The notes under the pieces: generated by a model
The model's database searches: none
What the model saw: the letters and a program-made list of their open reading frames with translations, nothing else
What the model was told of the DNA's origin: nothing
Source: Ardenticatenales bacterium
GTDB lineage: Bacteria; Chloroflexota; Anaerolineae; Promineifilales; Promineifilaceae
Direction: 5' to 3'
Length of the DNA stretch: 46,907 nucleotides
NCBI GenBank assembly: GCA_020634575.1
Contig: JACKBM010000056.1
Span: forward strand, 1-46,907
Translations under genes and position numbers: made by a program
Part shown: piece after piece, positions 12,562 through 39,135 of the stretch
Position numbering within the stretch: the stretch's first letter is position 1
Layout of the letters: every line of letters begins with the position of its first letter

Positions 12562-13893
12562 ATGAAAAACGAAAGGATTGACAGTGAACAGGATGCAGAT
12601 GTCATAGTGATCGGCGGCGGGCTGGCAGGGCTGACAGCGGCTTTGGCGCTGGGCCAGGCTGGCCGGCAGGTCATCTTGCTGGAGAAAGCCGCAGCCCTGG
12701 GGGGCCGAGCGGCCAGCCAGCAAAAAGAGGGTTATACCTTTAATCTGGGTCCACACGCCCTGTATCGCAGCGGCGCTGCCTTTCAGCACTTCAGCGAGAT
12801 CGGTTTGTCACTGGCCGGTGGCTTGCCCAACCAGCAGGGCGCGCTGGCTCTCACTCAGGGCGCACACTACCTGCTGCCAGCCGCCCCAGCCAGCTTCCTA
12901 AAAACCCGGCTGCTCTCAGCCGGCGAAAAGTTACAGGTCGGCAAGGCATTGCTAAGGCTGATGCGGGACAAGCCAGCGGCGTATGCCAGCATCAGCATCA
13001 GCGCCTACCTGGATGAGCTCGGGTTGACCGGCCGGTGCCGCGCCTTGCTCGAGACACTGAGCCGCATCAGCACCTATGGCAACGCCCCGGACCAGATGAG
13101 CGCGGAGATCCTGCTGCATCAATACCAGATTTACAACAGTGGCAATGTCCTCTACCTGGATGGTGGCTGGCAAAGCCTCGTCGCTGGACTGGTCAACCTC
13201 ATGACGGCGCTGCCTGTGACCATCCGGCTGCGGGAGCGGGTGGTGTCGCTGGCTGAGACAGCTGCCGGCATTGAATTAGCGTTGGCCGACGGCAGCCGGC
13301 TGCTGGCCGGCGCAGCCATCCTGGCCGTTGAGCCGGAAATCGCGGCCGAGCTGCTGCCTGAGGCGCCGCTTCTGACGGCGGGCCAGCCAATCTTGGCCGC
13401 CAGCCTGGACGTTGCCCTGCGCCGCTTGCCGGATGCGAGCTTTGCTTTTGCGGCCGGGCTGGATAAGCCCTACTATTATTCAGTGCATACGGCGGCAGCG
13501 GATCTGGCACCGGCCGGTCACGCCCTTATCCACATCGCCAAATACCTGGCACCCACAGGACCCGAGGCGATGGCAGATGAGGCAGAATTGGAGACGTTGC
13601 TGGATCAGTTGCAGCCCGGCTGGCGCGCCGAGCTCGACCACAAGCGCTTCCTGCCGCACCTGCGCGTGGTCAGCCGCCTGACGACAGCGGCAAACGGCGG
13701 CCTGGCCGGCCGGCAGCCGGTCACGATCATTGGCCACGACCGAATTTTCCTGGCCGGCGACTGGGTCGGCCCCGAAGGTTGGCTCGCCGATGCCTCCATC
13801 GCCAGCGCCCTGGCTGCCGCCCGCGCCGCTGAGGGGTTGGCTAACCCGTCGGGTTCGGCAACCCGACGGGTTAGCCAACCTGTTTGGAGTTGA
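12562..13893 (+). CDS. FAD-dependent amine-oxidase/phytoene-desaturase-like oxidoreductase
   Basis: About 443 residues. The dinucleotide-binding motif VIVIGGGLAGLTAALALGQA comes near the N-terminus, followed by LLEKAAALGGRA. The C-terminal FAD motif is RIFLAGDWVGPEGWLADASI. This layout fits NAD(P)/FAD oxidoreductases of the phytoene desaturase/protoporphyrinogen oxidase family. ATG 12562 with AGGA eight bases upstream is preferred over the TTG at 12544. The end of the gene runs into a perfect palindromic repeat (13835-13880), so the last 19 residues or so are repeat-derived. The TGA stop overlaps the ATG of the ECF41 sigma factor; oxidoreductases are among the genes usually paired with ECF41. 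Confidence 0.85.
   Translation: MKNERIDSEQDADVIVIGGGLAGLTAALALGQAGRQVILLEKAAALGGRAASQQKEGYTFNLGPHALYRSGAAFQHFSEIGLSLAGGLPNQQGALALTQGAHYLLPAAPASFLKTRLLSAGEKLQVGKALLRLMRDKPAAYASISISAYLDELGLTGRCRALLETLSRISTYGNAPDQMSAEILLHQYQIYNSGNVLYLDGGWQSLVAGLVNLMTALPVTIRLRERVVSLAETAAGIELALADGSRLLAGAAILAVEPEIAAELLPEAPLLTAGQPILAASLDVALRRLPDASFAFAAGLDKPYYYSVHTAAADLAPAGHALIHIAKYLAPTGPEAMADEAELETLLDQLQPGWRAELDHKRFLPHLRVVSRLTTAANGGLAGRQPVTIIGHDRIFLAGDWVGPEGWLADASIASALAAARAAEGLANPSGSATRRVSQPVWS
13835..13880. repeat. palindromic repeat, family A copy 1
   Basis: Perfect 21-bp arms (13835-13855 and 13860-13880) around loop CGGC; the core reads GGTTGGCTAACCCGTCGG. It sits inside the last codons of the oxidoreductase gene. 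A related copy with 24-bp arms is at 39082-39135. Confidence 0.9.
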
Positions 13894-23657: not shown

Positions 23658-24434
23658 CAACTTCTTTGTTGTCGCCAAAACCGGCTTTGAAGGCCGGTTT
23701 GAGACCTTTGGCAAGTAGAATCGGCGCCAATCCACCACTTTTAAGCCCAAAATCAGGCGGAATATGAATGGCAGATGAGCGCAGATGGCCGTTTCGCCCC
23801 AATTTGCCGGCGCATTACGTTTACCCCATTGATCGCCCATCTTGCCCCGGATGGCCTCGTTTCACGCTCCCTTCACGCCCGGAAATTGGCTGTTTTTCAC
23901 CGGCAAATGGGGCGATTGGTTTGGTAAATGCCGGCTGTTGCTGGCCATTTTGTTGACCGGCCGGTTGTTGGCTGCTTACCAGTTCCTCTCCCACACCGTT
24001 TGACAACCCTTTTGTGAAATATTTAACAGATCCCGGTTGGCTCACTTTACATTGATTCTGTTCTGACCAGTGGTCAATTGACCCGGCCCGCCCGCCGATA
24101 AATCGCGCGCCTGCCGGCCTCGCCAGGCTAATCCGCTCCCCCCTTTTGCGCCGCCAATTCCAGACGCCAAACACGGCCCAAATAGGGTCTTTTTTGCGTA
24201 GTTTTGTTGCAGTACCACAACAAAGTGAAGATGCCGTGAACGGTAAATAACGCCACCTGGCCCCTGTAAATCATGTCACATGGCCCCCAAAGGGCGCTTC
24301 CTACACTTGTGACCGTCTGGAAGAAGGCAACGGTTCTGCCAGACACAAAAATGTGCCAACCGGCACAAACGGGTCAAAGTGAGTCATAAGCAACGGTGAC
24401 GCGCCGCGACCCTCACAAACAGGGAGTGTCAACT
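23658..24434. other. long intergenic region upstream of the secreted protein
   Basis: About 775 bases without a supported gene. It holds an ACCGGCCGGT decamer (23956), an inverted repeat TGTGCC-aacc-GGCACA at 24352-24367, and GTCTGG/CCAGAC arms near 24315-24344. The two hairpins just upstream of the secreted-protein gene could be regulatory, but no known riboswitch was recognised. Confidence 0.45.
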
Positions 24435-27113
24435 ATGCAAAGGAAACTACGATTGAAGCATCTATTGCTCTTTGGATTCCTGGCAGTATCTTTAATCGCC
24501 GCCGGCGGCTTTGGCTGGTACAGCTATGCGCAGGCCCAATCCGGCCAGAACATCTACGGCGATTCTCTCCAGGGCGACTGGCTCAACTGGTCCTGGGGAA
24601 CAACAGTCAACTTCAATAATAATGCGCCGGTTCATTCCGGCAGTAGCTCGATGTCGGTCCAGTATAACCACCGTTGGGCCGGCCTCTTCCTTCACACAAA
24701 CAGCGTCCTCAACGCCAATGAATATGACGCGCTTCGTTTCTGGATTCACGGTGGTAGTGAAGGCAAACATCGCATCAGCCTCGCTCTGGTTGGGCCGGAT
24801 AACGCCTTCTCCAACCGGGTGCCGGTAACGACATCACAAGGTAATTGGACTGAAGTGGTCATCCCGCTGTCTGAGTTCGGCGCCATCGAAACCATCACCG
24901 GTATCGTCTGGCAGGACTTTGGTGGCGGCGCTCAGCCGATCTATTATCTGGATGACATCGCCTTTACTTCTGACGGCCCACCCCCGCCCCCGCCGCCGGC
25001 GCAGACCAACATCGTCATCTATGATGATGGTTTGACCAACGGCTGGAGTGACAATGCCTGGGGTACCGCTGCTGACATGGGCAGCAACACAACCGTCCAG
25101 GGTGGCAACAATGCTATCGCCGTCGACTATCAGCAGCTCTGGGCTGCGCTCTATCTGGTCAACAGTAATCCAGTTCAGACCGAATCGGGTATGAAGCTCT
25201 CGTTCTGGATCAATGGTGGTGACAATGGCAATCACCAGCTGCGTGTCGCCCTGACTGACGTCAATGGCGCCTTCACCGGCAACGCCGTCGCCCTTTCAAC
25301 CCAGGCCAATCAATGGCAACTGGTCGAGATCGACCTGGCCCAACTGGGCAGCCCGGCAACCATCGGCGGCATCATCTGGCAAGATACCACTGGCCAGCAA
25401 CAGCCGCCTTTCTACCTGGACTCCATCAGCCTGGTTGGCCCGCAGGCGCCGACGCCGGTCCCAACGGACGTGCCGCCGCAACCGACCGCCACCGACCAGC
25501 CGCCACAACCGACGGCTACCGACGTGCCGCCGCAGCCGACCGCTACCGACGTACCGCCACAACCAACGGCCACCGATCAGCCGCCGCAACCGACCGCTAC
25601 CAATCAGCCACCTGAGCCGACGGCGACGAACCAGCCGCCAGAGCCAACGGCTACCAACGAGCCGCCGCAACCGACCGCTACGGCCGTACCGCCAGAACCG
25701 ACCAACACGCCGGAGCCGCCGCCTCCGCCGCCGCCGAACACAAGTACGTTCTTTGAATCTTTTGATGGCGATCCGGGCCAGCCGACCAGCTTCGAGACGG
25801 ACAACATCGCCTGGACAGTCCACTCACGCGACGCCAATTCGTGGGGCCAGTTGCCGGCTATGGAAGCGGTCCATGGTCCAAACTGTGATGCGCCGCCGGC
25901 CACCCACACGGTGACCAACTACGAAGATACCCATTTCCAATGCCGCAACCATATGATGACTGCTATCAATGGCCCTGGCTACGCGATGGTCTACTTCACC
26001 CCCAACCATATGGTTGACTTCAGTGGCAACGAAGCGGTTATCCGCTGGGATATGTCCACCTACCGTGAGTCACAGCGTGACTGGATGGACGTCTGGATCA
26101 CCCCGTTCGAGCAGCACAACCAGCTCACTCTGCTGAACTGGCTGCCTGACCTGAACGGCCCGGCCCGCAACGCCGTCCATATTGAATTGATGGACATCTA
26201 CAACAACTTCAGCGCCGGGATCATCCGTGACTACAGCGATGACCGCATGCGCGGCAGCGATTATTGGGTTGGCTGGGAGAACTGGCTGACGCCGGATATG
26301 GCTCGCCGGGATACCTTCGAAATCCGCCTGACGCGGGATCGCGTCATCGTCTGGATGCCGGATTACAACCGGGTCTTCCTGGACCGTGAGATCAACCCGC
26401 CGTTGAACTGGTCACAGGGTACGGTGCAGTTTGGCCATCATTCCTACAATCCGAGCAAATCCTGCTTCGACAATGTGAACCCGAACTGCCACGCCGGCAC
26501 ATTCCACTGGGACAACCTGGAAATGTACCCGACGGTACCGTTCACGATGCTCAAGGCCGACCGCCGCGAGACGAGCAACGCCAGTGGTGCGGATGTCTTC
26601 CACTTCAACCGCCAATCGCCGGCCAACTCCTTCTTGCGCTTCACCGCCTTTGCCGGCAACAATCCGGAGATAAGCTGGGATGGTGGTCAGAGCTGGCACC
26701 CGGCGCAGCTGCAGCAGACCGAGACGCTGGAAGGCAATGTCTTCTGGCCCTACTGGACGCCGATACCGGCCGGTGTCACCCAGGTCCAGTTCCGTGGCAC
26801 CGAGCCCTGGTCCGGTGGCTATCGTGTTCGCGACGTCTCCATCTTCTCCAGGACGATCGACGCCGCGACGGCCGAACAATCCCTGGCGATGGCTGAGCGC
26901 GCCGCGGAACACCGCGCCCGCCCCAACTTCGTCAATATCAACCTGGCAGGCAGCTTCTGCACCATCCCGCAGAATAAACCCACCGAGATAACCTCGACGG
27001 CTGACAACCCGTTTGCCGGCTATCGCAACCTGGAGGAGCCCGCCGCCATCGATATTAATCGACGGGTAGCCAACTACCATGGCACCCGCCCGGATGATGA
27101 CAATGATGGTTAA
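24435..27113 (+). CDS. large secreted multi-domain protein with tandem CBM-like modules
   Basis: About 892 residues. The signal peptide is LLLFGFLAVSLIAAGGFGW with probable cleavage after YAQA. Two homologous beta-sandwich modules of about 145 residues follow; compare RFWIHGGSEGKHRISLAL with SFWINGGDNGNHQLRVAL, and IVWQDFGG with IIWQDTTG. Then a 9-residue Pro/Thr repeat linker (25470-25712) and a C-terminal region of about 450 residues that looks beta-rich and lectin- or glycoside-hydrolase-like (YAMVYFTPNHMVDF, RDTFEIRLTRDRVIVW). The N-terminal modules resemble carbohydrate-binding domains. No catalytic motif was identified. ATG 24435 is preferred over 24396 because it starts the signal peptide and has AGGGAG upstream. 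Probably an exported polysaccharide-binding protein. Confidence 0.82.
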   Translation: MQRKLRLKHLLLFGFLAVSLIAAGGFGWYSYAQAQSGQNIYGDSLQGDWLNWSWGTTVNFNNNAPVHSGSSSMSVQYNHRWAGLFLHTNSVLNANEYDALRFWIHGGSEGKHRISLALVGPDNAFSNRVPVTTSQGNWTEVVIPLSEFGAIETITGIVWQDFGGGAQPIYYLDDIAFTSDGPPPPPPPAQTNIVIYDDGLTNGWSDNAWGTAADMGSNTTVQGGNNAIAVDYQQLWAALYLVNSNPVQTESGMKLSFWINGGDNGNHQLRVALTDVNGAFTGNAVALSTQANQWQLVEIDLAQLGSPATIGGIIWQDTTGQQQPPFYLDSISLVGPQAPTPVPTDVPPQPTATDQPPQPTATDVPPQPTATDVPPQPTATDQPPQPTATNQPPEPTATNQPPEPTATNEPPQPTATAVPPEPTNTPEPPPPPPPNTSTFFESFDGDPGQPTSFETDNIAWTVHSRDANSWGQLPAMEAVHGPNCDAPPATHTVTNYEDTHFQCRNHMMTAINGPGYAMVYFTPNHMVDFSGNEAVIRWDMSTYRESQRDWMDVWITPFEQHNQLTLLNWLPDLNGPARNAVHIELMDIYNNFSAGIIRDYSDDRMRGSDYWVGWENWLTPDMARRDTFEIRLTRDRVIVWMPDYNRVFLDREINPPLNWSQGTVQFGHHSYNPSKSCFDNVNPNCHAGTFHWDNLEMYPTVPFTMLKADRRETSNASGADVFHFNRQSPANSFLRFTAFAGNNPEISWDGGQSWHPAQLQQTETLEGNVFWPYWTPIPAGVTQVQFRGTEPWSGGYRVRDVSIFSRTIDAATAEQSLAMAERAAEHRARPNFVNINLAGSFCTIPQNKPTEITSTADNPFAGYRNLEEPAAIDINRRVANYHGTRPDDDNDG
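25470..25712 (+). repeat. nine 27-bp coding repeats (Pro/Thr linker)
   Basis: Nine in-frame copies of a 9-residue unit of the form x-P-P-(Q/E)-P-T-A-T-(D/N). It is the flexible, probably O-glycosylated linker between the CBM-like modules and the C-terminal domain of the secreted protein. Confidence 0.92.
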
Positions 27114-31193: not shown

Positions 31194-32087
31194 CTACGCC
31201 TGGCTCAAACCACCCCGCACCGAACTGCCGATGCCGCCTGCAGCATCCAGCCAGCCCAGCGCCAGCTTGGGCGTGGAGTGAGCAGCGCCCAGGTTGCCGG
31301 CGGCGTCGATCAGGATCAGCCCGGCCATCGAGTTGCTAAACAGGCGTTCCACGTGGTCGATGGCCGCCTGACCGGCCGAGGCTGCGGTTAGGCCCTCCGC
31401 CATCTTGTCACAGGCATATTTTGACAGCAGCGCCCGCATGATGTTCTCACCATAACCGGTCGCCCCGGCCGCGCCGATACCGTTGTGCGCGTAACCGCCG
31501 GCGCCGAAAAGGGGCGAATCGCCAATGCGCCCATCTGGCTTTAGTGCCATACCGCTGGTCGAGGTGGCCGCCGCGATATTCCCGTCAGCATCGATGGCGA
31601 CGGCGCCGACAGTGTCGGCGGTCCGGCCCGGCCGGCTCGCTGCAAAATCAGACCGGGCTTTAGCCGAAATCAATGACTCGTTTTCGACCAGCGGCAGTCC
31701 CAACTCGGCTGCCATGCGATTAGCGCCTTCGCCGACGATAAAGCGGGGCTTAATCTCGGTCATAATCTGGCGCGCCAAGAGAATCGGGTTGCGCACCTGG
31801 GTGACCGCACCCACAGCGCCAAAGTCGGGGCCACGCCCATCGACCAGCAACGCATCCAGTTGCAAGACCCCATCCCGATTCAGACAGCCGCCAAAGCCTG
31901 CTTCAAACAACGGGTTGTCCTCCAGGTAAACCACCGTCTGGACCACAGCCTCAACGGCTGAGCCGCCGCCCGCCAGCACCGCCTGGCCGCGGGCCACGGC
32001 CTCTTGCATGGCCGCCTGAATAGGCGCATCAAAATCATCCGACCAATCCCAGGCGCCGCCATGCGCCACCAGCGTTCCTTTCATCAT
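31194..32087 (-). CDS. isoaspartyl peptidase/L-asparaginase (Ntn hydrolase)
   Basis: 297 residues. The precursor self-cleaves before the catalytic Thr in ADTVGAVAID (about residue 158). AAATSTSGMALKPDGRIGDS and GFGGCLNRDG are family blocks. These enzymes split beta-aspartyl peptides arising from protein damage and hydrolyse asparagine. The start codon overlaps the CDF exporter stop (TAATG), so it is translated from the same mRNA as the metal exporter, an unusual partner for this enzyme. Confidence 0.9.
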   Translation of the reverse strand: MMKGTLVAHGGAWDWSDDFDAPIQAAMQEAVARGQAVLAGGGSAVEAVVQTVVYLEDNPLFEAGFGGCLNRDGVLQLDALLVDGRGPDFGAVGAVTQVRNPILLARQIMTEIKPRFIVGEGANRMAAELGLPLVENESLISAKARSDFAASRPGRTADTVGAVAIDADGNIAAATSTSGMALKPDGRIGDSPLFGAGGYAHNGIGAAGATGYGENIMRALLSKYACDKMAEGLTAASAGQAAIDHVERLFSNSMAGLILIDAAGNLGAAHSTPKLALGWLDAAGGIGSSVRGGLSQA

Positions 32088-32980
32088 TACTCCTCGCAGC
32101 TGTCTGGGGCCATCAGACAGAGTTCATCAGCTCGCTCTACTTCAACCGTCACATGGCCAATGTCGTATTCGGTCACCAAGGTTTGCACTGCCTTTTTGGC
32201 ACGTAAAATGGCCGGCCGGTCCGCCAGCGCCGGCACCACCAGATGGGTGGACAGGACATGGTGTTCGCCATCCAGCGACCAGAGGTGGGTGTGATGAACC
32301 GATTCTACCTCCGAAATGGTCAGGAGTCGGCTTTCCAGGTGGGGGAGGTCGATACCGGCCGGTACCGCCTGCAAAAAAATCGCCGCCGTCTGCCGCAGGT
32401 AGCCCACCATGTTGTACAGCACGTAAAGCGTGATCAGCAGCGACATGATCGGATCCAGAATTGGCAGATCAACGAAGCGCATGACCAGGCTGGCAATCAG
32501 CACCGCCGCCCAACCCAGCACGTCCTCAAACAAATGCCAGGCCACGACCTTTTCGTTCAACGAATTGCCGCTCTGCACCCGCCACGCTGCCAGACCGTTG
32601 ACCAGGATGCCAACCAGGGCAAACAGTAACATCCCGTTCAGATCCGGCTGCTCCGGCGCCAGCAAACGAGGAATGGTTTCGGACAAAATGAAGCCAGTGC
32701 CGGCAATCAGAACCACCGTGTTGAGCAGCGCCGCCAGGAGGGAAAACCGCTGGTAGCCATACGAGAACCGGTTGTCGCCCGCCTTGCCCCCGTAACGGGC
32801 CAGCCCCCAGGCCAGCCCCAACGACAGCGTATCGCCCAGATCATGCAGCGCATCAGACAGGATGGCGACACTGTTCACCCAGAAACCGCCGATAATTTCC
32901 AGGATGGTGAAAGAAAGATTGAGGAAAAAGGCCAGCTTAATGTTGCCGGCCGAATCATGATGGTGATGGTGATGGCTCAT
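32087..32980 (-). CDS. CDF-family zinc/cobalt exporter with native His6 N-terminus
   Basis: 297 residues with six membrane segments and a C-terminal cytosolic metal-binding domain. TM2 carries SDALHDLGD (H-x3-D) and TM5 carries AWHLFEDVLGW (H-x3-D), the tetrahedral zinc site. The protein starts MSHHHHHHD, a natural hexahistidine metal-binding tail. CzcD/ZitB-type proteins export Zn2+ or Co2+ in exchange for protons. It follows the CzrA-like repressor by six bases, so it is almost certainly zinc-induced through the operator at 33290-33315. Confidence 0.92.
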   Translation of the reverse strand: MSHHHHHHDSAGNIKLAFFLNLSFTILEIIGGFWVNSVAILSDALHDLGDTLSLGLAWGLARYGGKAGDNRFSYGYQRFSLLAALLNTVVLIAGTGFILSETIPRLLAPEQPDLNGMLLFALVGILVNGLAAWRVQSGNSLNEKVVAWHLFEDVLGWAAVLIASLVMRFVDLPILDPIMSLLITLYVLYNMVGYLRQTAAIFLQAVPAGIDLPHLESRLLTISEVESVHHTHLWSLDGEHHVLSTHLVVPALADRPAILRAKKAVQTLVTEYDIGHVTVEVERADELCLMAPDSCEE

Positions 32981-32986
32981 GGCTGT

Positions 32987-33280
32987 TTACCCATGCTGAA
33001 CGTGTTCGAGACCACAGTGAAAAACTGTTGCCACGTGGTCGTCGTCCAGCGAATAAAAGATAAAGCGCCCATCGCGCCGGGTCTGCACCAGCCGCAGCTG
33101 GCGCAAGTGGCGTAAGTGATGTGAGGTTGTCGACTCCGAGCTACCGCTCAGCTCAGCCAGCTCGCCCACGCTTTTCTCCCCGCCGGTCAGGGCGCTGATA
33201 ATGCGGATACGGGTGCTGTCGCCTAAGGCGCGAAAGAGTTCGGCGATCTCGGCGGCAGTTTGTTCATCCAGTGGTTCCAT
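32987..33280 (-). CDS. CzrA/SmtB-type zinc-responsive ArsR repressor
   Basis: About 97 residues. Winged-helix core: ELFRALGDSTRIRIISALTG, recognition helix SSESTTSHHLRHLRQLRLV, wing DGRFIFYSLDDDHV. The alpha-5 helix has D-x-H-x10-H-x2-H (DDHVATVFHCGLEHVQHG), exactly the zinc site spacing of CzrA. ATG 33280 with AGGGA five bases upstream is the start; longer readings would run back through the operator. The downstream exporter confirms the role: the apo-protein represses, zinc releases it from DNA. Confidence 0.93.
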   Translation of the reverse strand: MEPLDEQTAAEIAELFRALGDSTRIRIISALTGGEKSVGELAELSGSSESTTSHHLRHLRQLRLVQTRRDGRFIFYSLDDDHVATVFHCGLEHVQHG

Positions 33281-33289
33281 AATTGTCCC

Positions 33290-33315
33290 TATATCTGAAT
33301 AACTGTTCATATATA
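33290..33315 (-). promoter_or_regulatory. ArsR/CzrA-type operator
   Basis: Near-palindrome TATATCTGAA-N6-TTCATATATA, matching the TGAA-N6-TTCA class of SmtB/CzrA operators. It lies between the predicted transcription start and the Shine-Dalgarno of the repressor gene, so bound repressor would block transcription. Confidence 0.85.
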
Positions 33316-33320
33316 CAGGC

Positions 33321-33348
33321 ATTATATTCATTTTTGTCCCCTTGCCAA
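33321..33348 (-). promoter_or_regulatory. promoter of the zinc-exporter operon
   Basis: On the minus strand: TTGGCA (33348-33343), 16-base spacer, TATAAT (33326-33321). The start of transcription would fall at the edge of the operator. Confidence 0.7.
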
Positions 33349-33368
33349 TAGCGCGGCAGCGGATCGGG

Positions 33369-33374
33369 TATAAT
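33369..33374 (+). promoter_or_regulatory. -10 box directly before the TPR gene (leaderless)
   Basis: TATAAT six bases before ATG 33381, so +1 is predicted at the A of ATG. No good -35 hexamer at normal spacing is seen. Confidence 0.6.
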
Positions 33375-33380
33375 GGCGCC

Positions 33381-33914
33381 ATGAGTAAGTATGAGGAAGG
33401 GATGGCTCATTTCCGGGCCGGACAGCACGAGACGGCCCTCCAGGCGCTTGAAGAAGCGCGGCAGCAACGGCCAGACGACGCCGAGGTCCAATGCGCGCTG
33501 GGGATGGCCTATCACGCGACCGGCCGGATCCACCTGGCCATTGACGCCTACAGCGCCGCCATCGCCCTCAATGGCAGCGAACCCTACTACTATCAGTTCC
33601 GTGGCGCCGCCTACTTTGACCAGAACCAGTTCCAGAAGGCGTTGGCCGATTTCAACTATGCCGTCCAGGAAGCGCCCTACAATGACGCTGCCTACTGGGG
33701 TCGCGGCAAAATCCACCTCGCCCTGAACGACCCCAACTGGGCCATCGTCCAGTTCAGCCACGCCCTCGAGCTGGACCCCCACAACCCCACCTACTACGAA
33801 GACCGCGCCCGCGCCTACGAACGCCTCGGCCAGATCGCCAACGCCGCCGCCGACCGCGAATTCGCCGGCCGCCTGTTGCAAGGCTGGTTCAGGTCTTCGC
33901 TGCGCTCAGACTGA
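33381..33914 (+). CDS. tetratricopeptide-repeat protein
   Basis: About 177 residues made of four or five TPR units, e.g. EEGMAHFRAGQHETALQALE, AYHATGRIHLAIDAYSAAIA, AYFDQNQFQKALADFNYAVQ and IHLALNDPNWAIVQFSHALE. TPR solenoids bind peptides or proteins; there is no signal peptide. ATG 33381 follows a TATAAT box by six bases and there is no Shine-Dalgarno, so a leaderless mRNA is likely. The last seven residues or so are encoded by a palindrome (33893-33928) that is also the probable terminator. Confidence 0.88.
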   Translation: MSKYEEGMAHFRAGQHETALQALEEARQQRPDDAEVQCALGMAYHATGRIHLAIDAYSAAIALNGSEPYYYQFRGAAYFDQNQFQKALADFNYAVQEAPYNDAAYWGRGKIHLALNDPNWAIVQFSHALELDPHNPTYYEDRARAYERLGQIANAAADREFAGRLLQGWFRSSLRSD

Positions 33915-33932: not shown

Positions 33933-33994
33933 GTAACCATTATCACATTTACCTCGTCGGCCGAACCCTTATAATCACTACCTGAGGTAACCCT

Positions 33995-34477
33995 ATGAAA
34001 CAATGGCGTCTATTGATTTTTGCACTGTTAGCGCTTCTGGCGCTGGTCGCTTGCGGCAGCGAGAGTGGCGCTGTGTTGGGCGTGGCAGCCGCTGAGGAAG
34101 CTGACGAGGCCAACGACTTTGTCCCCCAGCTCGATCCTCAGCGCCCCTACCCCGCGCCCGACCTGGCGCTCGTCGGCAACACCGGGCGGCCGCAGTTCCT
34201 GAACAGCTACGCCGACTGGTGAACGACCTGACAGGCCAATAAGCCTATCGTGAATAGGCTTCAGGAACAGTTCGAAGACCGCATTGATTTTTTCCATCTG
34301 AGCGTGGATTTTGTGGAAACCCTGGATGTACGGCAGCAATACAACATGGTGCGCCGTAGCCAATATCAGCTACTGGACCCGGCCGGTGAAACCGCCGTCA
34401 ATTGGTTTGGCCCTCTTTATGAAGAGCAAATGGTCGAGCAAATTGAGGCCAAACTGACCGAATTTGCCACTCAATAA
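33995..34477 (+). CDS. candidate selenoprotein: thioredoxin-fold lipoprotein with UxxU in place of CxxC
   Basis: One continuous frame of 160 codons plus stop if two TGA codons are read through. The signal peptide has lipobox LVAC (LLALLALVACGSES), so it would be an outward-facing lipoprotein. After an acidic linker, the thioredoxin-like domain reads LVGNTGRPQFLNSYADW-TGA-T-T-TGA-QANKPIVNRLQ and continues FHLSVDFVETLDVRQQYNMV and YQLLDPAGETAVNWFGPL, a normal fold. The two TGA (34220-34222, 34229-34231) sit exactly where the redox Cys of W-C-x-x-C belong. A perfect hairpin at 34241-34261 fits a bacterial SECIS. TATAAT (33970-33975) and a GAGGT ribosome site precede the ATG. The alternative is a pseudogene with two nonsense changes at just these codons. 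Confidence 0.75.
34227..34265 (+). promoter_or_regulatory. SECIS-like hairpin
   Basis: Upper stem AAGCCTAT / ATAGGCTT (34241-34248, 34254-34261), loop CGTGA with G at loop position 2. A possible lower stem CCTG / CAGG encloses the second TGA. The loop starts 17 bases after the second TGA and 26 after the first, within the 16-37 range of bacterial SECIS models. Confidence 0.65.
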
Positions 34478-35356: not shown

Positions 35357-36532
35357 ATGCGCCAATACTTCACTCGCCGTAACTGTCTGACCGCCTTCGG
35401 CGTCCTGGTTCTGCTGCTGGTCATGCTGGTTGTGGGCGGCGCCTTTGTCATCAACCGCTTTGTCAATATCGGCGCCATTGTCAGTGATGGCGGTGAGGCG
35501 GCGGTGCAGGTACCGGCCGGTTTCTCCGTCAACATCTTTGCCTCAGGCCTGCTCGGCCCCCGCTTCATGGCCGTCGGCCCGGACGGCCACCTCTATGTCG
35601 CCGACCGGCTCAACGACCGCATCATCATCCTGCCGGACCGAAACGGCGACGGCGTAGCCGACGAAACCCTCGTCTTTGCGACCGGCCTCAACCGCCCCCA
35701 CAGCCTCACCTACCACGAGGGGAGCTGGTACGTTGGCGTCCCGGCCGGCATCGTCGTCCTGACGGACAGCGATGGCGACCTGAGCGCGGACAGCAGCACG
35801 ATGCTCATCGACGACTTCCCCACCAGCGGCACCCATAGCACCCGCACCGTCGATTTCCTGCCCGATGGCCGCATGGTGGTCTCCATCGGCTCCAGCTGCA
35901 ATGTCTGCGAAGAAACAGATGAGCGCCGCGCCGCCATCGTCGTTTACGACATGCCGGGCGCCCTCAACGAACGGCTCTACGCCACCGGCCTGCGCAACGC
36001 CGTCGGCCTGGCCGTTCAGCCCGGCACCGGCCACCTCTGGGCCAGCAATAACGGCCGTGACCTGATGGGCGATGATCTGCCACCCGAAACCGTCTATCGT
36101 CTCAGCGAAGGCAGCTTCTACGGCTGGCCGGTCTGCCATAACGGCTACCTGATCGACCCGGACATGGGCAGCCCCGGCAGCTGTGACGGCGTCACCCCAC
36201 CTACCGTCGAAATGCAGGCCCATTCAGCGCCGCTGGGACTGGCCTTTTATGATGCCCAGCAGTTCCCGGAGGAATATTGGGGCGACCTTTTTATCGCGTT
36301 CCACGGCTCCTGGAACCGCAGCGAACCTACCGGCTACAAGGTGGTCCGGCTGGACCTGGTCAGCGGGGTCCCGGCCACTGCGGTTGAGGATTTTGCCACC
36401 GGTTGGTTGGATGGCGCCACTGGCGAAGCAGCCGGCCGGCCGGTTGATGTGGTCGTTGGCGCGGATGGCGCTCTGTATGTTAGCGACGACAAGGGTCACT
36501 TCATCTACCGGATCAGCTACACAGGCGAATGA
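35357..36532 (+). CDS. PQQ-dependent sugar dehydrogenase-like beta-propeller (membrane-anchored)
   Basis: 391 residues. N-terminal signal anchor (FGVLVLLLVMLVVGGAFVI), then a six-bladed propeller of the glucose/sorbosone dehydrogenase type: VPAGFSVNIFASGLLGPRFM, RNAVGLAVQPGTGHLWASNN, GWPVCHNGYLIDP, FHGSWNRSEPTGYKV. Relatives oxidise sugars with PQQ at the outer face of the membrane, but PQQ binding cannot be confirmed by eye. CAGGAGAA precedes the ATG. It is eight bases from the second propeller gene and so shares its transcript. Confidence 0.88.
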   Translation: MRQYFTRRNCLTAFGVLVLLLVMLVVGGAFVINRFVNIGAIVSDGGEAAVQVPAGFSVNIFASGLLGPRFMAVGPDGHLYVADRLNDRIIILPDRNGDGVADETLVFATGLNRPHSLTYHEGSWYVGVPAGIVVLTDSDGDLSADSSTMLIDDFPTSGTHSTRTVDFLPDGRMVVSIGSSCNVCEETDERRAAIVVYDMPGALNERLYATGLRNAVGLAVQPGTGHLWASNNGRDLMGDDLPPETVYRLSEGSFYGWPVCHNGYLIDPDMGSPGSCDGVTPPTVEMQAHSAPLGLAFYDAQQFPEEYWGDLFIAFHGSWNRSEPTGYKVVRLDLVSGVPATAVEDFATGWLDGATGEAAGRPVDVVVGADGALYVSDDKGHFIYRISYTGE

Positions 36533-39081: not shown

Positions 39082-39135
39082 GGTGAGGGGTTGCCAACCC
39101 GTCGGTGGGACCCGACGGGTTGGCAACCCCTCACC
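39082..39135. repeat. palindromic repeat, family A copy 2
   Basis: Perfect 24-bp arms (39082-39105, 39112-39135) with loop TGGGAC. It shares TTG-C-AACCCGTCGG with the copy at 13835-13880. Its right arm supplies TTGGCA, which stands 16 bases before TATAAT of the next gene. Confidence 0.92.

What the first reader, a model, noticed from the sequence alone, without database searches (positions are those of the whole stretch)
33995..34477. Candidate di-selenocysteine (UxxU) thioredoxin-fold lipoprotein
Seen: a lipoprotein signal, linker and thioredoxin-like domain run in one frame across two TGA codons that fall exactly on the two cysteines of the W-C-x-x-C redox motif (W-TGA-T-T-TGA-Q). Everything before and after is normal coding sequence without other stops or frame changes. 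Known: bacteria insert selenocysteine at UGA with a downstream SECIS hairpin, and Sec usually replaces catalytic Cys; paired Sec motifs are rare. Inference: an extracytoplasmic selenolipoprotein with UxxU. TGA is a normal stop elsewhere in this window (for example at 13891-13893 and 36530-36532), so general reassignment does not explain it. An automated gene caller would split it into two hypothetical fragments.
Basis: partly seen in the sequence, partly recalled or inferred. Interest (0 to 1): 0.95.

Follow-up and report, generated by a model that had tools for sequence, protein, structure and literature searches.

The report
Two-selenocysteine thioredoxin-like lipoprotein
A gene from an uncultured bacterium carries two UGA "stop" codons exactly where its relatives carry the two active-site cysteines of a predicted surface thioredoxin-like protein, and one RNA hairpin conserved just downstream likely makes the ribosome insert selenocysteine at both, a double recoding that appears to have evolved more than once.

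Summary
The only internal stops in 33995-34477 are two TGAs, on both Cys of W-C-x-x-C. Of 85 distinct family rows read (window included), 60 are UxxC, 12 UxxU and 13 CxxC. All 72 Sec-type rows keep at least 5 of 6 pairs of a hairpin at one fixed offset from the first UGA; 5 of 13 Cys forms do. In 51 Sec sequences the stem covaries (5 of 6 pairs). SelB occurs in 45 of 50 tested genomes with Sec forms and 0 of 8 with Cys forms. Both UGAs lie within the published 16-37 nt of the same apical loop (26 and 17 nt), so one SECIS most likely serves both. A single UxxU clade is rejected (AU p 0.007), which suggests repeated origin from UxxC. Review passages that I read list UxxU for other families and PF00085 thioredoxin only as UxxC. 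Not testable: the window's own selA/B/C/D (no genome held) and the protein itself.

The parts
33984..33987 (+). Shine-Dalgarno-like GAGG upstream of the ATG
   Evidence: sequence
33995..34477 (+). complete gene, 160 codons plus TAA, two internal TGA codons
33995..34054 (+). predicted lipoprotein signal peptide, residues 1-20, lipobox ...LVAC (Cys20), by reading
   Evidence: similar N termini in most of the relatives whose starts I read
34175..34474 (+). thioredoxin-fold domain, residues 61-160
   Evidence: PF00085; AlphaFold2 pLDDT block means 95-98 over residues 61-160; nearest PDB folds are thioredoxins
34220..34222 (+). UGA1, residue 76, inferred Sec; TGA in 60 UxxC rows and in all 12 UxxU rows
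34229..34231 (+). UGA2, residue 79, inferred Sec; TGA in 12 rows (window included), Cys in the other 73
34241..34261 (+). SECIS-like hairpin AAGCCTAT-CGTGA-ATAGGCTT: 8-bp stem (conserved core 34243-34248 with 34254-34259), 5-nt apical loop 34249-34253; loop begins 26 nt after UGA1 and 17 nt after UGA2
   Evidence: covariance model hit 63.4 bits at 34220-34270 (the window is in the model)

Best explanation
Window 33995-34477 encodes a predicted thioredoxin-fold lipoprotein whose two in-frame UGA codons (34220-34222 and 34229-34231) stand on the two active-site Cys positions of its relatives and are likely both translated as selenocysteine (U-x-x-U), directed by one conserved hairpin, the likely SECIS, at 34241-34261. 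Proposed working (inferred): SelB carrying Sec-tRNA binds the CGUG apical loop; the loop starts 26 nt after UGA1, so after the first Sec is inserted and the ribosome has moved three codons, UGA2 is still 17 nt from the same loop, inside the 16-37 nt range, and is decoded by a second SelB-Sec-tRNA round. The exported, lipid-anchored product would form a diselenide across the motif and act as an extracytoplasmic selenol/diselenide oxidoreductase. UxxU likely arose more than once from UxxC ancestors by a single Cys-to-UGA codon change, with no change needed in the hairpin. Shown: the reading frame, TGA/Cys exchange, hairpin covariation, spacing, genome co-occurrence in relatives. Inferred: Sec identity, double use of one hairpin, surface location, redox role, direction of change.
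For: (1) Alignment: 60 UxxC, 12 UxxU and 13 CxxC among 85 rows. The motif search asked for Cys or TGA at both columns, and no locus examined was dropped for lacking it. (2) RNA: in 51 Sec sequences (47 distinct) aligned without gaps, 96.8% of 282 stem cells pair against 84.9% shuffled, 49 doubly changed cells against 14.5 (0 of 500 shuffles), 5 of 6 pairs change on both sides, and slid controls fall to 10-48%. The first 8 Cys forms give 50.0% and no double change. Over all rows, 72 of 72 Sec forms have 5 or 6 of 6 pairs, 5 of 13 Cys forms do. Third codon positions under the loop are frozen: 27 of 27 C and 51 of 51 G, against about 1.2-2.0 bits at most other fourfold sites. (3) The hairpin meets the bSECIS rule printed in PMC13188914 (loop 3-9 nt, stem 4-16 bp, G in the first two loop positions, 16-37 nt spacing; passage) for both UGAs. 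On 9 UxxU sequences RNAalifold predicts this one hairpin and no other within 105 nt. (4) Machinery: SelB over cut-off in 6 of 8 UxxU, 39 of 42 UxxC and 0 of 8 CxxC genomes tested, Fisher p 6.7e-7 not corrected for kinship; SelA in 5/5, 4/4, 0/6; SelD in 5/5, 4/4, 1/6; tRNA-Sec at 59 bits or more in 5/5, 20/22, 0/6. (5) Two database proteins carry Trp at both motif positions (P0044, P0045), as expected if a caller read TGA as Trp: probably two more UxxU genes. (6) Thioredoxin fold predicted with high confidence.
Against: No protein, RNA or selenium measurement. No genome is held for the window, so its own selA/B/C/D are untested; the window itself has no tRNA gene. UxxU genomes G415 and G420 show no SelB at E<=1e-70, and G420 no SelA either; UxxC genome G319 lacks SelB, SelA and a strong tRNA-Sec; UxxC genomes G204 and G455 lack SelB but have SelA. 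Completeness of these genomes is not told. Single-sequence folding of the window is mostly unremarkable: z -3.25 for 34220-34275, but -1.29, -1.17 and -0.75 for three other cuts. The hairpin is not exclusive to Sec forms: 5 of 13 Cys rows keep 5 or 6 of 6 pairs (L077, L151, L180, L182, L184), three of them with CGUG; two of these genomes (G123, G045) also carry a UxxC copy. One hairpin for two UGAs is inferred from spacing and from the lack of a second conserved hairpin.
Confidence: 0.87

Rival explanations
1. Only one of the two UGAs is read as Sec; the other is read inefficiently, by a near-cognate tRNA or mainly as a stop, so the main product is a UxxC-like, mixed or truncated protein.
For: The hairpin sits at the same place in UxxC relatives where only UGA1 exists, so it is tuned to UGA1; UGA2 at 17 nt is near the lower bound of 16 nt.
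Against: The frame past UGA2 stays open and family-like in 12 UxxU rows spread over several branches. Between the window and three near relatives, bases after UGA2 differ most at third codon positions (16/12/21, 14/10/19 and 11/13/18 over 41 codons), a modest bias that fits translation past UGA2. Apparent repeated origin of UxxU argues that it works.
Confidence: 0.1
2. The gene is a decaying pseudogene, or the two TGAs are sequencing or assembly errors.
For: It is a single contig of unknown origin.
Against: No other stop or frameshift in 161 codons; 11 other genomes share the double TGA; the hairpin is complete, 6 of 6 core pairs and 63.4 bits.
Confidence: 0.02
3. UGA is read as Cys or Trp by a suppressor tRNA or a changed genetic code, not as Sec.
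For: Database copies P0044 and P0045 bear Trp at both positions.
Against: TGA is the stop of 7 of 17 window ORFs checked; the genomic relatives read have Cys or TGA in these columns; a SECIS-like hairpin and Sec machinery accompany the TGAs in most relatives.
Confidence: 0.02
4. Same double selenoprotein, but its job is binding of metals or other soft ligands (for example Hg) rather than thiol/disulfide exchange.
For: PMC13188914 ties several transport-related selenoproteins to metal resistance (passage) and names one UxxU family metal-binding (NF041115). In the window's clade the residue aligned with the thioredoxin cis-proline is Ser or Thr (R-S-Q-Y type), a change that, from memory, favours metal binding.
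Against: That residue is not tied to UxxU: UxxU rows L197-L199 have Pro there (by eye) and CxxC rows L001, L003 and L004 have Ser. The five UxxU loci L120-L124 share no neighbour gene at E<=1e-8. The window's ArsR-like/CDF pair at 32087-33382 was not followed.
Confidence: 0.15

Closest known systems
Bacterial thioredoxin selenoproteins, PF00085, UxxC (row in the table of PMC13188914)
   Same: PF00085 fold, Sec at the first active-site position, in-frame UGA with bSECIS
   Different: two Sec (UxxU), lipoprotein-type signal; the NCBIfam thioredoxin model is far below cut-off (28.3 vs 96.8 bits for TIGR01068)
NF041057, Rcas_1661 family thioredoxin-like (seleno)lipoprotein (accession listed as DsbG-like, UxxC, in PMC13188914)
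   Same: thioredoxin-like selenolipoprotein; from memory the name refers to Roseiflexus, also Chloroflexota
   Different: different family: 23.3 bits against a cut-off of 190 for relative L069, no match at E<=1e-3 for the window protein; UxxC in that table
Prx-like thiol:disulfide oxidoreductase, PF00578, UxxC/UxxU (PMC13188914, PMC9312934) and the GOS Prx-like 2 family with several UxxU sequences (PMC2398784)
   Same: same kind of UxxC/UxxU variation in a thioredoxin-fold redox protein
   Different: PF00578 scores 16.0 against cut-off 26 here; no lipoprotein or shared-SECIS statement in the passages I read
Other listed UxxU families: NF041115 metal-binding protein, FmdB TIGR02605 (PMC13188914)
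   Same: two Sec in a UxxU motif in bacteria
   Different: no match to the window protein at the thresholds used
Animal selenoprotein L (recalled; seen only in search listings)
   Same: UxxU, thioredoxin-like (recalled)
   Different: eukaryotic 3'-UTR SECIS (recalled); homology not tested

Membership tests
Bacterial selenoprotein (Sec by SelB and bSECIS) | in-frame UGA where homologues have Cys | tested here: met
   85 rows: 60 UxxC, 12 UxxU, 13 CxxC
Bacterial selenoprotein (Sec by SelB and bSECIS) | bSECIS: stem 4-16 bp, loop 3-9 nt, G in first two loop positions, 16-37 nt from UGA | tested here: met
   8-bp stem, loop CGUGA, 26 and 17 nt; covariation; rule from PMC13188914; bSECISearch itself was not available
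Bacterial selenoprotein (Sec by SelB and bSECIS) | SelA, SelB, SelD, tRNA-Sec in the same genome | not testable with these tools
   no genome held for the window; found in most UxxU relatives tested
Bacterial selenoprotein (Sec by SelB and bSECIS) | selenium in the protein | not testable with these tools
   needs 75Se or mass spectrometry
Thioredoxin domain PF00085 | Pfam score over gathering cut-off and thioredoxin fold | tested here: met
   28.3 vs 23.5 bits (Cys for Sec); model and PDB matches
Thioredoxin domain PF00085 | W-C-x-x-C motif | tested here: inconclusive
   W kept; both Cys replaced by UGA-coded residues
Lipoprotein | signal peptide with lipobox Cys | tested here: met
   ...LVAC at residues 17-20 by reading, no predictor run; similar in most relatives read but not L065
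NF041057 Rcas_1661 (seleno)lipoprotein | NCBIfam cut-off 190 bits | tested here: not met
   23.3 bits for L069; window protein not listed
Prx-like UxxC/UxxU, PF00578 | Pfam cut-off 26 bits | tested here: not met
   16.0 bits

The most novel reading that the evidence does not exclude
One SECIS hairpin placed 26 nt downstream acts as a two-shot recoding signal: it reprograms two UGA codons nine nucleotides apart in the same ribosome passage. Because the UxxC form already has this spare spacing, a single Cys-to-UGA change at the second site makes a working di-selenocysteine thioredoxin, and Chloroflexota have made that step repeatedly.
Probability: 0.62. Interest if true: 0.8.

Novelty: new variant of a known kind. 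Interest (0 to 1): 0.7.

Why it matters
Bacterial SECIS elements lie inside the coding sequence just behind the UGA, so two Sec codons six nucleotides apart can hardly each have a hairpin of their own; this family offers a compact natural test of whether one hairpin-SelB complex can decode twice, with UxxC siblings as ready controls. It also shows a lineage in which a second Sec seems to be gained repeatedly and Sec gives way to Cys where the Sec machinery was not found, and it adds a widespread selenoprotein family that gene callers truncate or mistranslate. If the diselenide forms, it would be a thioredoxin-type lipoprotein with an unusual redox couple.

Tried and rejected
Own genome: not held, so machinery was tested in relatives only. 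Rfam scan of the window gave nothing. Single-sequence folding alone was not decisive; covariation was. SelD hairpins as a spacing yardstick: my script printed the in-frame TGA region for only two of four SelD loci and I could not assign the hairpin firmly, and the family's covariance model found no SelD hit in those four loci, so SelD is not used as evidence. A single origin of UxxU was not rejected with 9 UxxU rows (AU p 0.175) and was rejected after three more distant UxxU rows were added (p 0.0074; starred branches force at least 3 changes, parsimony 6; changes may be gains or losses); these three were fetched because they were flagged with two TGAs, and L199 is a long branch, so the number of origins stays open. 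Conserved operon partner: none shared by the UxxU loci L120-L124; a gene that is F420 ligase-like (PF01996, tested for G002 only; the others by BLAST similarity) lies beside the family gene in G002, G167, G283 and G001 and near it in G003, but not in the window. I considered that loss of the cis-proline goes with UxxU and dropped it (L197-L199 keep Pro). The window's species could not be placed closely: one window protein has best matches of 44-63% identity in the family of G002. Phylum search at E<=1e-15: 23 of 400 genomes, none of its 24 newly cut loci UxxU; that threshold would miss distant UxxU rows such as G055 and G372. Of 12 listed rows flagged '2 TGA', 8 were UxxU and 4 (G348, G323, G195, G331) were UxxC plus a terminal TGA. 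My first view that the hairpin is lost in Cys forms held for the first 8 as a set but not for all 13 (5 keep it). Rows left out of the 85: 17 duplicate loci, L173 (repeat of L074), L200 (UxxC, G195); the more distant hits L005-L053 and places without a locus were not counted.

Full report
WHAT IS THERE. The frame at 33995-34477 starts with ATG behind a GAGG and ends in TAA; inside, the only stops are TGA at 34220-34222 and 34229-34231. Read with TGA as U it gives a 160-residue protein: signal peptide with lipobox LVAC (by reading), a linker, then a thioredoxin domain with W-U-T-T-U-Q. PF00085 scores 28.3 bits against a cut-off of 23.5 (Cys for Sec). AlphaFold2 (Cys in place of Sec, 14-row alignment) gives mean pLDDT 85.8 and pTM 0.68 for the whole chain, and block means of 95-98 over residues 61-160, with residues 76-79 at the start of a core helix; the 50 PDB matches shown are mostly thioredoxins or thioredoxin fusions. 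TGA is a normal stop for 7 of 17 other window ORFs that I checked.

RELATIVES. A protein search found four relatives, all W-C-T-T-C-Q. A DNA-level search of genome contigs gave 53 loci, of which four are near relatives; one of these, L002 from an Anaerolineae MAG (JAIOHM010000068.1), has TGA at the first Cys. Whole-genome searches that read through stops then covered 396 genomes of that class, 52 and 98 genomes of two families and 400 of the phylum. Reading the loci gives 85 distinct rows including the window: 60 UxxC, 12 UxxU, 13 CxxC; the residue before the motif is W in 70, T in 11 and G in 4. The UxxU rows are the window, L065 (G354), L066 (G285), L067 (G098), L068 (G256), L069 (G356), L132 (G415), L133 (G420), L134 (G419), L197 (G211), L198 (G055) and L199 (G372). 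I read as loci only part of the listed places.

DATABASE COPIES. In a second protein search, P0044 and P0045 have Trp at both motif positions (W-W-S-T-W), most simply two further UxxU genes translated with TGA as Trp, and P0047, P0048, P0050 and P0051 (77-84 aa) end exactly at ...A-x-W, that is, where the first UGA would stand.

THE HAIRPIN. In every Sec-type row a hairpin lies at one fixed offset: 61 of 72 have 6 of 6 core pairs and 11 have 5. Aligned from UGA1, 51 Sec sequences need no gap. On 47 distinct sequences the six-pair core pairs in 96.8% of 282 cells; 5 of 6 pairs show changes on both sides; 49 cells are doubly changed against a shuffled mean of 14.5 (0 of 500 as high); one measure, further pair types, does not exceed the shuffles (9 vs 8.7); sliding the partners lowers pairing to 10-48%. 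The loop CGUG is present in 61 of all 72 Sec rows, among them all 12 UxxU rows; the other 11, with T-U-x-x-C, have GGUU on the same stem position. Because the hairpin is in coding sequence I checked silent sites: at codons +9 and +10 the third base is C in 27 of 27 fourfold cases and G in 51 of 51, while most other fourfold sites have entropies of about 1.2-2.0 bits (codons +1, +7, +8 and +12 are also low, 0.37-0.85). In the first 8 Cys forms the same columns pair at 50.0% with no compensatory change, against a shuffled mean of 53.0. Over all 13 Cys rows, 8 have 1-3 pairs and 5 have 5 or 6: L077 (G292) and L151 (G432), where SelB was not found, and L180 (G123), L182 (G077) and L184 (G045), of which G123 and G045 also carry a UxxC copy. 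Such remnants resemble the SECIS-like structures in Cys forms reported in PMC1794560 (passage).

MACHINERY. SelB over the NCBIfam cut-off: 6 of 8 UxxU genomes tested (of 11 known), 39 of 42 UxxC, 0 of 8 CxxC; Fisher p 6.7e-7, ignoring kinship. SelB also occurs in 12 of 20 genomes that had no family match, so the machinery does not depend on this gene. SelA: 5/5, 4/4, 0/6; in a second set of 12 it is found in G415, G419, G204, G455, G269 and G458 and not in G420, G319, G432, G460, G007 or G160. SelD: 5/5, 4/4, 1/6. tRNA-Sec at 59 bits or more: 5/5 UxxU, 20/22 UxxC, 0/6 CxxC, with weaker hits of 50.6 and 47.1 bits, over Rfam's cut-off of 47, in two CxxC genomes. So Sec forms largely go with the Sec machinery and the tested Cys forms with its absence, with exceptions G420 and G319.

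ONE HAIRPIN, TWO CODONS. The apical loop begins 26 nt after UGA1 and 17 nt after UGA2. The published rule is 16-37 nt, loop 3-9 nt, upper stem 4-16 bp, G in the first two loop positions (PMC13188914, passage); both codons meet it with the same hairpin. In nine UxxU sequences RNAalifold predicts only this hairpin within 105 nt. The hairpin is at the same place in UxxC rows, so nothing needs to change when the second Cys codon becomes UGA. That one hairpin serves both is an inference from this geometry; no reporter or structure supports it yet.

EVOLUTION. On a tree of 85 rows with the motif columns masked, UxxU needs 6 changes, well-supported branches force at least 3 (gains or losses), and a single clade is rejected (AU p 0.0074); with the first 59 rows it was not rejected (p 0.175). 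Alignments are short (96 columns) and many forks open. CxxC is also not one clade on the 59-row tree (p 0.00024). Direction of change is not shown by an unrooted tree.

LITERATURE. Read as passages through text search: PMC13188914, PMC9312934, PMC2398784, PMC4959059, PMC1794560. They list UxxU for a Prx-like PF00578 family, a metal-binding (mercuric reductase-like) family, FmdB and a GOS Prx-like 2 family, and PMC13188914 lists PF00085 thioredoxin with UxxC. 'Chloroflexi' is absent from the main text of PMC13188914 and PMC9312934, and 'Chloroflexota' from PMC13188914. PMC1794560 counted 3 selenoproteins in Chloroflexi in 2006. PMC4959059 reports Sec formate dehydrogenases and Sec translation factors in Anaerolineales single cells, with no mention of thioredoxin. 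Searches for 'UxxU' with selenoprotein (5 papers), Chloroflexi with SECIS and thioredoxin, Anaerolineae with selenocysteine, Chloroflexota with selenoprotein, diselenide/UxxU/SelL terms (15 listed) and multi-Sec bSECIS terms (15 listed) showed no paper on this family by title or abstract start; most subscription papers are not in that library. NF041057 shows that a different thioredoxin-like (seleno)lipoprotein is already named.

VERDICT. The finding is real: a di-selenocysteine (UxxU) thioredoxin-fold lipoprotein is by far the best reading, part of a large, mostly UxxC selenoprotein family of Chloroflexota. It is a new variant of a known kind; the most interesting open point, directly testable, is that one SECIS seems to serve two UGA codons. 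Biochemical role is inferred only.

Noticed in passing
L117, L118, L119 and other SelD places: 9 of 10 SelD matches are flagged with one TGA inside (Sec-type SelD, read in two of them); the tenth, in CxxC genome G274, has none.
   Followed up: partly
L177-L179, L181, L183, L185, L187, L188, L192-L194: Eleven rows with T-U-x-x-C instead of W-U-x-x-C whose hairpin keeps the stem but has a GGUU loop instead of CGUG.
   Followed up: no
P0044, P0045, P0047, P0048, P0050, P0051: Database proteins of this family with Trp at both motif positions, or ending where the first UGA would be.
   Followed up: partly
L151 (G432), L077 (G292), L180, L182, L184: Cys forms that keep 5 or 6 of 6 hairpin pairs: possible recent Sec-to-Cys reversions; SelB not found in G432 and G292.
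   Followed up: partly
L125:5716-6564, L126:5880-6731, L127:3914-4750, L001:4086-4892, L003:3491-4321: An F420-0:gamma-glutamyl ligase-like gene (PF01996 tested on L125; others by similarity) lies beside or near the family gene in these loci, not in the window.
   Followed up: partly
L004: Record is titled Bacteroidetes bacterium, yet its genome falls in the same family set as Anaerolineae MAGs and its gene groups with theirs; the title is probably wrong.
   Followed up: no
window 32087-33382, minus strand: Cation-diffusion-type transporter with a natural MSHHHHHH start beside a small ArsR-like regulator, judged by sequence only.
   Followed up: no
window 39082-39135: Perfect inverted repeat, two 24-nt arms with 6 nt between.
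   Followed up: no
window 25296-25914: Long low-complexity Pro/Gln/Thr-rich linker (PPQPTATD-type repeats) inside ORF 24396-27113.
   Followed up: no
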